A stretch of 64,000 nucleotides of DNA from Luteimonas panaciterrae (GTDB lineage: Bacteria; Pseudomonadota; Gammaproteobacteria; Xanthomonadales; Xanthomonadaceae), in the NCBI RefSeq assembly GCF_020511115.1, contig NZ_JAJAVH010000012.1:62001-126000 (forward strand), written 5' to 3'. A program made the translations under genes and the position numbers. Each line of letters begins with the position of its first letter. The first letter of the stretch is position 1. Shown here in pieces: positions 22,348-24,485 of the stretch. Under the pieces are notes generated by a model. The model was given only the letters and a program-made list of their open reading frames with translations. It did not search any database and was not told the origin of the DNA.

Positions 22348-24042
22348 CTACAGCGCCGCGTTATGCACACCCGCCACCGCGCGCCCCGACGGATCGGCCG
22401 CATTCGCGAAACTCGCGTCCCAGGCAATCGCCGCCGGCGACGAACAGGCGATCGACTTGCCACCGGGCACAGTCTCGGCCGCAGCCGGTGACGGGAACGC
22501 CTGCTCGAACAAGCTGCGATAGAAATACGCTTCCTTGGTCAGCGGCGGATTGATCGGGAAGCGTTTGTCGGCGGCGGCGAGTTCGCGGTCGCTGACCTGC
22601 TTCTCCGCATGCGCCTTGAGTCCGTCGATCCAGCCGTAGCCGACACCGTCGCTGAACTGCTCCTTCTGCCGCCACAGGATCGACTCAGGCAGATAGCCGT
22701 CGAAGGCCTCGCGCAACACCGCTTTCTCGATGCGGCCGCTGGGCTTGTCGACCATCTTGGCCTGCGCGTCCATCTTCATCGCCACGTCGAGGAATTCGAC
22801 GTCGAGGAACGGTACGCGTGGCTCCACGCCCCAGGCCATCATCGATTTGTTGGCGCGCAGGCAATCGTAGTTGTAGAGCGCGTCGAGCTTGCGCACCAGC
22901 TCCTCGTGGAACTCGCGCGCGTTCGGCGCCTTGTGGAAGTAGAGATAGCCGCCGAAGATCTCGTCGCTGCCCTCGCCCGAGAGCACCATCTTCACGCCCA
23001 TCGCCTTGATGCGACGCGCCAGCAGGTACATCGGCGTGGACGCGCGGATGGTGGTGACATCGTAGGTCTCGATGTGGCGGATCACGTCCGGCAACGCGTC
23101 CAGGCCTTCCTCGAAGGTGTACTTGAAGCCGTGATGCACCGTGCCGAGCGCATCGGCGGCGATTTGCGCGGCGGCGAGATCGGGCGAGCCTTCCAGGCCG
23201 ATGGCGAAGGAATGCAGACGCGGCCACCAGGCTTCGGAGACGTCGTCGTCCTCCACGCGCTTGCGTGCGAAGCGGGCGGCGCAGGCGGCGACCAACGAGG
23301 AATCCAGTCCACCCGACAACAACACGCCGTAAGGCACGTCGGTCATCAGCTGGCGATGCACGGCACGCTCGAAAGCCTCGCGCAGCTCCTGCGCCGAAAC
23401 CTGCACACCCTCCGTCACTGCGTAATCGCGCCACGGCTTCTCGTAATACTTGACCAGCGAGCGCGTGGCACTGTCGTAGTAGTGGCCCGGCGGAAACTGC
23501 GCGACGTCCGCGCACAGGCCGGCGATCGCCTTCATCTCGGAAGCCACGCACAGGCGCCCTTCGCGATCATGGCCCCAGTACAGCGGGCACACGCCAATCG
23601 GGTCGCGGGCGATCAGGACGCGCTGCTGGTCGCGATCCCAGAGCGCGAAGGCGAAGATGCCGTTCAAACGGTTGAGGAAGTTTTCCGGCCCGCCCTGGTC
23701 GAGCACGTCTTCCAGATACAACGCGTTGATGACCTCGCAATCGGAGCCGGTCTGGAAGTCGTAGGCGTGCCGCAGTTCCTTCTTCAGCTCGCGATGGTTG
23801 TAGATCTCGCCGTTGACCGCGAGCACCAGCCGGCCGTCGGACGATTTCAGCGGCTGCGAGCCGCCGGCCGGATCGACGATGGCCAGGCGTTCATGGACCA
23901 GGATCGCGCCCTCGTCGGCATGCACCCCGCTCCAGTCCGGGCCGCGATGACGCTGGCGTTGCGAGAGTTCCAGCGCCTGTCGCCGCAGAGCGGGCAGATC
24001 GTCGCCCGTCTGCAGGCCGAAGATTCCGAGGATCGAACACAT
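22348..24042 (-). CDS. asnB: Asparagine synthetase B (glutamine-hydrolysing)
   Basis: A 564-residue enzyme making asparagine from aspartate, ATP and glutamine. Cys2 after the initiator Met (MCSILGIFG) is the glutaminase nucleophile of the N-terminal class II domain, with RLAIVDPAGG, NGEIYNH and DCEVI typical of it. The C-terminal synthetase domain has the PP-loop GVLLSGGLDSSLVAA and later SGEGSDEIFGGY. GGAG lies eight bases before the ATG. Upstream is an Asn-codon-rich short frame followed by an intrinsic terminator pointing into this gene, which suggests transcription attenuation by charged tRNA-Asn. Confidence 0.96.
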   Translation of the reverse strand: MCSILGIFGLQTGDDLPALRRQALELSQRQRHRGPDWSGVHADEGAILVHERLAIVDPAGGSQPLKSSDGRLVLAVNGEIYNHRELKKELRHAYDFQTGSDCEVINALYLEDVLDQGGPENFLNRLNGIFAFALWDRDQQRVLIARDPIGVCPLYWGHDREGRLCVASEMKAIAGLCADVAQFPPGHYYDSATRSLVKYYEKPWRDYAVTEGVQVSAQELREAFERAVHRQLMTDVPYGVLLSGGLDSSLVAACAARFARKRVEDDDVSEAWWPRLHSFAIGLEGSPDLAAAQIAADALGTVHHGFKYTFEEGLDALPDVIRHIETYDVTTIRASTPMYLLARRIKAMGVKMVLSGEGSDEIFGGYLYFHKAPNAREFHEELVRKLDALYNYDCLRANKSMMAWGVEPRVPFLDVEFLDVAMKMDAQAKMVDKPSGRIEKAVLREAFDGYLPESILWRQKEQFSDGVGYGWIDGLKAHAEKQVSDRELAAADKRFPINPPLTKEAYFYRSLFEQAFPSPAAAETVPGGKSIACSSPAAIAWDASFANAADPSGRAVAGVHNAAL

Positions 24043-24149
24043 CGCGATGTCTCCAATTGGATTGCTTTATTTGGAAAGTCCGCACATCGAACCGTGCCGT
24101 CAGCGCGGTGAGGTGTGCGGGCTCTTGCGGAGGGCCCCGCATACGCCTA

Positions 24150-24180
24150 AAAACAAAAAACCCGCGCTGGGCGCGGGTTT
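24150..24180 (-). terminator. Attenuator terminator in the asnB leader
   Basis: On the minus strand a 10-bp stem (AAACCCGCGC from 24180 to 24171, GCGCGGGTTT from 24167 to 24158, loop of three) runs into TTTTTTGTTT (24160-24151). It points towards asnB, 108 bases ahead of its start, so full termination here would block asnB. The 5' arm also contains ACCCGC (24178-24173), which can instead pair with GCGGGT (24222-24217) at the end of the leader-peptide frame, giving a candidate antiterminator. Confidence 0.75.
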
Positions 24181-24206
24181 CGGGGATGCTGGATGCTCGC
24201 TCGCAC

Positions 24207-24296
24207 CTAGCCGCCGACCCGCCTTGTGGGCGCGCGGTTATTGGAACGGTTATTGACGTTCCGCTGGGCGTTGGCGATGGAGGTGACAAACGGCAT
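24207..24296 (-). CDS. Asn-rich leader peptide of asnB (attenuation peptide)
   Basis: A 29-codon frame, MPFVTSIAN then AQRNVNNRSNN, ends at TAG (24207-24209). Asparagine fills positions 9, 13, 15, 16, 19 and 20: six of 29 residues, and five of the eight from 13 to 20. The gene downstream makes asparagine and an intrinsic terminator stands between, the classic layout of a trp/his-type attenuator. No Shine-Dalgarno precedes the ATG, and an in-frame stop lies two codons upstream. A promoter candidate puts the transcript start at or within a few bases of the ATG, so translation may be leaderless. Function is inferred. Confidence 0.65.
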   Translation of the reverse strand: MPFVTSIANAQRNVNNRSNNRAPTRRVGG

Positions 24297-24303
24297 GGGT
24301 CAG

Positions 24304-24333
24304 ACGCTAACCGGTCCGCCGTGGGTTTGGCAA
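24304..24333 (-). promoter_or_regulatory. Promoter of the asnB leader
   Basis: On the minus strand TTGCCA (24333-24328) and TAGCGT (24309-24304) are separated by 18 bp. The -35 matches consensus at five of six, the -10 at three including the key first A and last T. The predicted start falls at or next to the leader-peptide ATG at 24296. Confidence 0.55.
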
Positions 24334-24340
24334 GCGCTTT

Positions 24341-24485
24341 CTGCCCTCTCCCTCCGGGAATCGAAGCCACCTCAAGCGGCCGAGGGTTGGGGTGAGGGTG
24401 CGGCGAAGTCCAGAGGGTTCAAACATCCGAACTTCGCCGCACCCTCATCCGCCCTCCGGGCACCTTCTCCCAAACGGAGAAGGAT
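24341..24485. repeat. Palindromic repeat cluster upstream of asnB
   Basis: Two degenerate units in opposite orientation. The left has CCCTCTCCCTCCGGGA and later GGGGTGAGGGTGCGGCG; the right has GCCGCACCCTCATCCG then CTCCGGGCACCTTCTCCC and GGAGAAGG. They can pair as one large imperfect hairpin. The same unit occurs at 28318-28457. A 34-bp stretch from about 24361 (ATCGAAGCCACCTCAAGCGG...) also recurs at 31221-31256 across the tesB stop codon. Confidence 0.65.

What the first reader, a model, noticed from the sequence alone, without database searches (positions are those of the whole stretch)
24150..24333. asnB appears to be controlled by an asparagine-codon leader-peptide attenuator
Seen directly: a 29-codon frame with six Asn codons, five of them in positions 13-20; then a 10-bp intrinsic terminator with a T-run, both pointing into asnB; a TTGCCA/TAGCGT promoter ahead; and a 6-bp alternative pairing GCGGGT (24222-24217) with ACCCGC (24178-24173) that would break the terminator. 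The Asn run lies just before the segment able to mask that pairing. This is the logic of trp/his attenuation, applied to asparagine synthetase. Known proteobacterial attenuators I can name concern trp, his, ilv, leu, thr and phe; I know of no established Asn leader, so it may be undescribed. The peptide may be translated from a leaderless message.
Basis: partly seen in the sequence, partly recalled or inferred. Interest (0 to 1): 0.92.

Follow-up and report, generated by a model that had tools for sequence, protein, structure and literature searches.

The report
Asparagine-sensing attenuator upstream of asnB
A short reading frame packed with asparagine codons, followed by a transcription stop signal, sits before the asparagine-making gene in most of the related bacteria examined and very probably switches that gene on when asparagine runs short, a use of a classic mechanism that our limited searches did not find described.

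Summary
Upstream of asnB (24042..22348, minus strand) lie a promoter, a 29-codon frame with six Asn codons (24296..24207), a 10-bp intrinsic terminator (24180..24155) and an antiterminator segment inside the frame. Relatives make the case. In the window's family 90 of 91 readable upstreams of the same asnB clade carry an Asn-rich leader; 0 of 14 of a more distant asnB clade do. Over 122 leaders, Asn codons fill 18.6% of the frame but 0.1-0.3% of the other two forward frames; all 122 have a terminator 19-36 nt after the leader stop. Antiterminator and terminator arms covary. In a stalled-ribosome folding model the antiterminator forms at the Asn codons and is lost about three codons later. The family has AsnRS and no detected GatB, so Asn-tRNA charging should need free asparagine. 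The leader message is probably leaderless. The trp-style protector hairpin is predicted in the window but not conserved. No description was found in a limited library. Nothing here measures transcription.

The parts
24328..24333 (-). -35 element TTGCCA
   Evidence: the same TTGC.. box at the same place before the leader ATG in relatives
24304..24309 (-). -10 element TAGCGT, 18 nt from the -35 and 7 nt from the leader ATG; predicted start of transcription at or next to 24296
   Evidence: predicted, no transcript data
24207..24296 (-). leader peptide frame (29 codons and stop), six Asn codons, no Shine-Dalgarno sequence, probably translated from a leaderless message
24237..24260 (-). control codons: codons 13-20, with Asn at 13, 15, 16, 19, 20
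24228..24237 (-). segment 1, can pair with segment 2 (protector hairpin); predicted in the window, not conserved in relatives
24214..24222 (-). segment 2 (GCGGGTCGG), antiterminator arm inside the leader frame
24171..24180 (-). segment 3, shared arm: pairs with segment 2 (antiterminator) or segment 4 (terminator)
24155..24167 (-). segment 4 and T-run: second arm of the intrinsic terminator
22348..24042 (-). asnB, glutamine-dependent asparagine synthetase, the controlled gene (GATase_7 and Asn_synthase domains)
   Evidence: only hit of its kind in the genome

Best explanation
This is a ribosome-mediated transcription attenuator that senses charged tRNA-Asn and controls asparagine synthetase. 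RNA polymerase starts at or next to the leader ATG; a ribosome loads on the 5' AUG and follows it. If Asn-tRNA is plentiful the ribosome passes the Asn run, sits on segment 2 or the stop codon, segment 3 pairs with segment 4 and transcription stops before asnB. If Asn-tRNA is scarce the ribosome stalls on the Asn codons, segment 2 is free and pairs with segment 3, the terminator cannot form, and asnB is transcribed. Shown by sequence comparison: the Asn-rich frame, the terminator, the alternative helix with covariation, the promoter position, AsnRS present and GatB not detected. Modelled: the effect of ribosome position. Inferred: leaderless translation, stalling, and the response to asparagine in the cell.
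For: Conservation: 90 of 91 readable upstreams of the same asnB clade in the family (71-100% identity; 92 genomes, one cut by a contig end whose leader was found on another contig), in 39 of 40 genera, against 0 of 14 of the 62-66% clade; also 41 of 80 named loci, 16 of 17 loci fetched of family f12 and 3 of 3 of f2. Codon level: Asn codons 741 of 3986 in frame, 4 of 3866 and 10 of 3866 in the other forward frames, 24-50 per reverse frame. Terminator: 122 of 122 leaders, 0 of 1220 shuffles scored as well. Helix 2:3: where segment 3 has U, segment 2 has A in 13 of 13; where it has C, segment 2 has G in 102 of 105; in 9 of the 13 segment 4 stays G, so the partner that changed is segment 2. On the 66-row alignment 94.4% of 2:3 cells pair against 26-44% when slid, 18 double changes against 7.2 shuffled, 0/500; 3:4 likewise. 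Placement: 667 of 680 Asn codons lie where a stalled ribosome leaves 2:3 possible; the last such codon is 1 or 2 codons after the last Asn in 93 of 111 leaders. Logic: asnB is the only clear asparagine synthetase of the genome; AsnRS over cut-off in 115 of 119, GatB in 0 of 119; in 160 genomes of the order asnB (97) and GatB (49) never occur together. A covariance model of the element hits asnB upstreams alone above 44 bits: 44 hits in 43 of 60 genomes.
Against: No transcript, reporter or starvation data. The protector (1:2) hairpin is not conserved: without a ribosome the model gives antiterminator 0.58 on average over 68 representatives (0.0006 in the window), so the trp scheme is not fully matched. 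4 of 122 leaders gave no segment 2 by the rule used, and 7 of 118 never reach 0.5 antiterminator in the model. 10 of 122 have few T in the tail. Only 41 of 71 representatives pair 2:3 better than 95% of shuffles of their own stretch. Relatedness inflates the permutation and shuffle controls. The leader set was chosen by Asn density, so enrichment inside it is partly by selection; the 90 of 91 count is not.
Confidence: 0.93

Rival explanations
1. The hairpin is only the terminator of the upstream gene (pirin in the window), and the Asn-rich frame is incidental.
For: Pirin and its own repeats lie upstream on the same strand.
Against: Pirin-like gene upstream in 2 of 41 loci, yet leader and terminator remain; a promoter at fixed distance lies between; segment 2 inside the frame covaries with the terminator arm.
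Confidence: 0.01
2. The leader encodes a small protein with a function of its own; the Asn run belongs to the protein.
For: The part after the last Asn is well kept between relatives (597 of 747 aligned positions within genera).
Against: The part before the Asn run varies in length and sequence; the kept tail is the part that forms segment 2 and changes with segment 3; no NCBIfam family found for six leader peptides beyond one sub-cut-off chance match.
Confidence: 0.03
3. The leader senses general translation (initiation or any stall) rather than asparagine; Asn codons are merely slow codons.
For: In the folding model ribosomes anywhere before or at the Asn codons allow the antiterminator, and in most relatives so does the absence of a ribosome. 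AAT is enriched in leaders (97 of 217) over asnB genes (39 of 264).
Against: The amino acid is always Asn, matches the product of the gene, and both Asn codons are used (396 AAC, 345 AAT); branched-chain codons fill the corresponding frames before ilvC and ilvD in relatives.
Confidence: 0.03

Closest known systems
trp, his, ilv, leu, thr and phe leader attenuators of proteobacteria (recalled; PMC1183508 passages describe the scheme)
   Same: Leader frame rich in codons of the product, control codons just ahead of the antiterminator segment, shared arm, intrinsic terminator before the gene.
   Different: Amino acid is Asn; probably leaderless; protector hairpin not conserved.
ilvC and ilvD leaders in the same family (found here)
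   Same: Short frame with a run of Ile, Leu and Val codons, then terminator, then the gene; similar enough to be second-tier hits of the Asn model.
   Different: Branched-chain codons and other genes.
Leaderless leader peptides: trpL of Sinorhizobium meliloti (PMC7298713, passages), leuL1, leuL2, trpL1, trpL2 of Streptomyces lividans (PMC8079986, section 14 part 1)
   Same: Leader frame reported to begin at the 5' end of the transcript.
   Different: Other amino acids and phyla or classes; the eight S. lividans leaders listed are for Leu, Trp, Ala, Ile, Met and Thr.
T-box RNAs for Asn in Firmicutes, and AsnC in E. coli (recalled)
   Same: Control of asparagine supply; T-boxes read tRNA charging directly.
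   Different: No T-box found here; AsnC is a protein regulator.

Membership tests
ribosome-mediated transcription attenuator | short leader frame with clustered codons for the product of the controlled gene | tested here: met
ribosome-mediated transcription attenuator | intrinsic terminator between leader frame and gene | tested here: met
   window; 122 of 122 leaders, 0 of 1220 shuffles as good; 10 have a weak T-run
ribosome-mediated transcription attenuator | alternative helix that shares an arm with the terminator | tested here: met
   covariation; 4 of 122 leaders failed the rule used
ribosome-mediated transcription attenuator | control codons placed so that a stalled ribosome leaves the antiterminator free and a finishing one does not | tested here: met
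   folding model with a 13-nt footprint from the A site
ribosome-mediated transcription attenuator (trp-type layout) | protector 1:2 hairpin that gives termination without translation | tested here: inconclusive
   window: segment 2 paired upstream 0.88; mean of 68 representatives 0.31
ribosome-mediated transcription attenuator | the tRNA that is sensed is charged from the free amino acid | tested here: met
   AsnRS over cut-off in 115 of 119, GatB 0 of 119
ribosome-mediated transcription attenuator | transcription of the gene rises when the amino acid is limiting, through leader translation | not testable with these tools
   needs experiment
T-box riboswitch | match to the T-box covariance model | tested here: not met
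   no T-box match at E up to 5
Rfam amino acid operon leaders (Trp_leader, Leu_leader) | gathering score | tested here: not met
   18.3 against 41 and 21.0 against 50

The most novel reading that the evidence does not exclude
An asparagine attenuator that spans two or three families of an order, works on a leaderless message, and in most species has no protector hairpin, so that it is on by default: termination needs a ribosome that loads on the bare 5' AUG and finishes the peptide. asnB would then answer both to Asn-tRNA charging and to the efficiency of leaderless initiation.
Probability: 0.35. Interest if true: 0.75.

Novelty: new variant of a known kind. Interest (0 to 1): 0.66.

Why it matters
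It adds asparagine to the amino acids whose synthesis is governed by ribosome-mediated attenuation, at a single-gene pathway end where the sensed tRNA, its synthetase and the enzyme form a closed loop. It is present in Xanthomonas, Stenotrophomonas, Lysobacter, Luteimonas, Pseudoxanthomonas, Thermomonas, Rhodanobacter, Dyella and relatives (named loci), which gives a large natural set for testing which parts of an attenuator are essential, notably whether a protector hairpin is needed and how leaderless translation couples to transcription. It also explains short unannotated frames before asnB and gives a test for tRNA-Asn charging.

Tried and rejected
Pirin terminator: rejected, pirin-like upstream in 2 of 41 loci. 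T-box or known Rfam leader: no match. Known leader peptide family: six leader peptides against NCBIfam, no family over cut-off. Asn leaders outside the order: among named loci that are not Lysobacterales some short ORFs reach 3-5 Asn in 10 codons, the highest being Photobacterium iliopiscarium L095 (5 in 10), but none had a terminator placed as in the leaders; they lie in AT-richer genomes and I set them aside. In a class-wide sample of 185 genomes only one genome outside the family had this asnB at the threshold, and its upstream shows no leader. Other asnB clades of the order: f9 0 of 13 fetched, f5, f4, f10 0 of 1 each, f7 1 of 22. Other genes with the same element: none above 44 bits in 60 genomes; of 14 weaker hits fetched, eight are ilvC or ilvD leaders and six look like ordinary terminators after genes.

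Rows dropped before counts: 11 of 186 upstreams as exact duplicates over the last 300 nt; from the leader set, by hand, nine non-Lysobacterales loci (L062, L063, L072, L074, L086, L089, L091, L092, L095) and L163 of the family, which reach 3 or more Asn in 10 but have no leader-like layout; L014 because its contig ends before the leader. For the alignment A1, 65 of 71 representatives and the window were used; six were left out (L166, L026, L043, L050, L055, L058). The leader start of L166 was wrong and was mended, together with the GTG start of L058, so rest on 121 leaders. Order loci with 3 Asn in 10 but no fitting layout (L223, L231, L233) were judged by eye as not leaders; L210 (3 Asn in 10) was judged a leader.

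Literature: ten searches of an open-licence library gave no Asn attenuator. PMC2965389, PMC1262725, PMC1183508 and PMC3771888 were searched for terms and seen in passages only; PMC7298713 likewise, plus the start of its abstract; PMC8079986 in passages and section 14 part 1. The main comparative paper (Vitreschak 2004) and a Xanthomonas transcriptome paper are not held, so absence from print is not established.

Full report
What is there. On the minus strand, between the pirin gene (24485 and above) and asnB (24042..22348), the sequence holds a promoter (TTGCCA 24333..24328, TAGCGT 24309..24304, spacer 18), a frame from ATG 24296 to TAG 24207 encoding MPFVTSIANAQRNVNNRSNNRAPTRRVGG, and a 10-bp terminator hairpin with T-run, 24180..24155. 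GCGGGT 24222..24217, inside the frame, is complementary to ACCCGC 24178..24173, the first arm of the terminator. The downstream gene has glutamine amidotransferase and asparagine synthase domains. The whole 79-nt stretch folds into a 1:2 hairpin, a middle hairpin and the terminator (-40.3 kcal/mol, 2 of 200 shuffles as good); cut before segment 4, it folds into the 2:3 antiterminator.

Relatives. asnB was found in 106 of 119 family genomes. I took the upstream of all 106. In 92 the gene is 71-100% identical to the window's; 91 have readable upstream sequence and 90 carry an Asn-rich leader, in 39 of 40 genera; 84 of the 91 have at least 4 Asn in 10 codons. In the other 14 (62-66% identity) none does, the highest density being 2 in 10. 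The exception is L163. The one unreadable case (L014, contig end) has its leader on another contig. Of 80 named asnB loci, 41 have a leader, from Xanthomonas, Stenotrophomonas, Pseudoxanthomonas, Luteimonas, Lysobacter, Thermomonas, Arenimonas, Rhodanobacter, Dyella, Fulvimonas and Frateuria among others. Across the order, 16 of 17 loci fetched from family f12 (21 had asnB) and 3 of 3 from f2 have it; 0 of 13 from f9, 1 of 22 from f7, and 0 of 1 each from f4, f5 and f10. In a protein tree of 91 rows the 51 with a leader fall in one branch of 54 with support 99; the three without are contigs titled Rhodococcus, Holophagales and Deltaproteobacteria. The label needs four changes on the tree.

Asn codons are the conserved feature. 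Over 121 leaders the frame has 741 Asn codons in 3986; the other forward frames have 4 and 10 in 3866 each, the reverse frames 24 to 50. AAC (396) and AAT (345) interchange. In 70 representatives 68 reach 4 or more Asn in 10 within 300 nt of asnB; 6 of 1400 dinucleotide shuffles do. The representatives were chosen from leaders, so this shows strength, not frequency. In 84 within-genus pairs Asn positions are kept in 414 of 584, other codons before the last Asn in 599 of 1238, and codons after it in 597 of 747; pairs are not independent.

Promoter and leaderless start. Taking the farthest upstream in-frame ATG without looking at the promoter, 120 leaders show fixed promoter columns: T at -35 relative to the ATG in 90, A at -11 in 70, C at -1 in 103. 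With the best-scoring promoter chosen, the -10 lies 6 or 7 nt before the ATG in 114 of 121 and the spacer is 17 or 18 in 118 of 121 (this second count is biased by the choice). The start of transcription should fall on or next to the A of the ATG. This is prediction; no transcript was seen.

RNA. All 122 leaders have a hairpin 19-36 nt after the stop, each with CC[CT]GC in its first arm; none of 1220 shuffles of the same stretches scores as high as its own original. Ten have fewer than six T in the tail window. Segment 2 was located in 118 of 122 by best complement to the core, which favours pairing; the informative point is what changes together: in 13 leaders of seven genera segment 3 has U in place of C and segment 2 has A in all 13, while of 105 with C 102 have G. 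In 9 of the 13 segment 4 keeps G and forms a G-U pair. On a MAFFT alignment of 66 sequences the 2:3 helix forms standard pairs in 94.4% of cells against 26-44% when slid by 1-3 columns, with 18 double changes against 7.2 in shuffles; the number of pairs with double changes (2) and of pair types (4) does not exceed shuffles. The 3:4 helix pairs in 98.9% with 58 double changes against 20.6. Own segment pairs are better than swapped ones (-18.7 against -16.1 kcal/mol, 0 of 5000 permutations; 71 representatives), but against shuffles of the same stretch only 41 of 71 pass 95%. Relatedness inflates these controls.

Ribosome position. I folded the nascent RNA up to segment 3, with the part from the A-site codon to 13 nt downstream hidden. 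Means over 68 representatives: ribosome on the last Asn codon, 2:3 probability 0.73; second last 0.87; three codons past the last Asn 0.05; on the stop 0.00; no ribosome 0.58. For the window: last Asn 0.998, stop 0.00, no ribosome 0.0006 because segment 2 pairs upstream (0.88). The last codon that permits 2:3 lies one or two codons after the last Asn in 93 of 111 leaders, and 667 of 680 Asn codons are at permissive places; with Asn positions shuffled 9% of cases fall within 0 to 3 codons against 86% observed. So control codons sit at the edge of the antiterminator, as the mechanism requires. Without a ribosome most relatives are predicted to read through, unlike the trp leader; the window's species is predicted to terminate.

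Metabolic logic. The genome has no AsnA and one asnB, besides a weak short hit of the synthase domain elsewhere. AsnRS is over the curated cut-off in 115 of 119 family genomes and GatB is found in none of 119, while the control genomes ring as expected for GatB in 12 of 14. In 160 genomes of the order 97 have this asnB and 49 have GatB; no genome has both, 14 have neither. Asn-tRNA in these bacteria should therefore depend on free asparagine, which asnB makes.

Only asnB, and a built-in comparison. A covariance model of the element gave 44 hits of 44 bits or more in 43 of 60 family genomes, each upstream of asnB; two that were on other contigs were checked and also precede asnB. The model was built partly from these genomes. 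Weaker hits that I fetched include eight leaders with runs of Ile, Leu and Val codons before ilvC or ilvD (domains confirmed for one of each; the others recognised by eye), so the same lineage uses the same build for branched-chain amino acids.

Known or new. Ten searches of an open-licence full-text library found no asparagine leader attenuator. A survey of premature terminators (PMC2965389, passages) does not mention asparagine in the text searched. Leaderless leader peptides are known for other amino acids (PMC7298713 passages; PMC8079986 section 14 part 1). The 2004 survey of proteobacterial attenuators could not be read. I rate it a new variant of a known kind: new amino acid, leaderless, protector hairpin mostly absent.

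What is not shown. No transcript end, no termination, no translation of the leader and no response to asparagine has been measured. The attenuation reading rests on comparison and folding.

Noticed in passing
24071..24148 (minus strand): A stretch of about 75 nt between the terminator and asnB has many similar copies in the genome, 92-96% at best; it ends in GTGCGGACTTTCCAA and five matches to part of it lie at 95-base spacing on contig C1. It may be a repetitive extragenic element.
   Followed up: partly
24390..24450: A 30-nt inverted repeat (83%) after the pirin gene; parts of this region also recur in the genome.
   Followed up: no
L258, L259, L263, L264 and L262, L265, L270, L271: Leader frames with runs of Ile, Leu and Val codons and a terminator before ilvC (four) and ilvD (four) in relatives, of the same build as the Asn leader.
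   Followed up: partly
L230 (family f7, genus g94): An isolated Asn-rich frame MFAIYNTINTTNNRLLRSAGSF with a terminator and a complementary segment before asnB, in a family where the 21 other loci fetched lack one; ancient trait, transfer or chance cannot be told.
   Followed up: partly
32 named leader loci: AAT is 97 of 217 Asn codons in leaders but 39 of 264 in the asnB genes they precede; structure avoidance or tuning of decoding are possible reasons.
   Followed up: no
L028, L044, L059: asnB genes 75-84% identical to the window's, without a leader, on contigs titled Holophagales, Rhodococcus and Deltaproteobacteria; gene transfer or misplaced contigs.
   Followed up: no
order-wide sample of 160 genomes: This asnB and GatB never occur in the same genome (97 and 49 genomes, 14 with neither).
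   Followed up: partly
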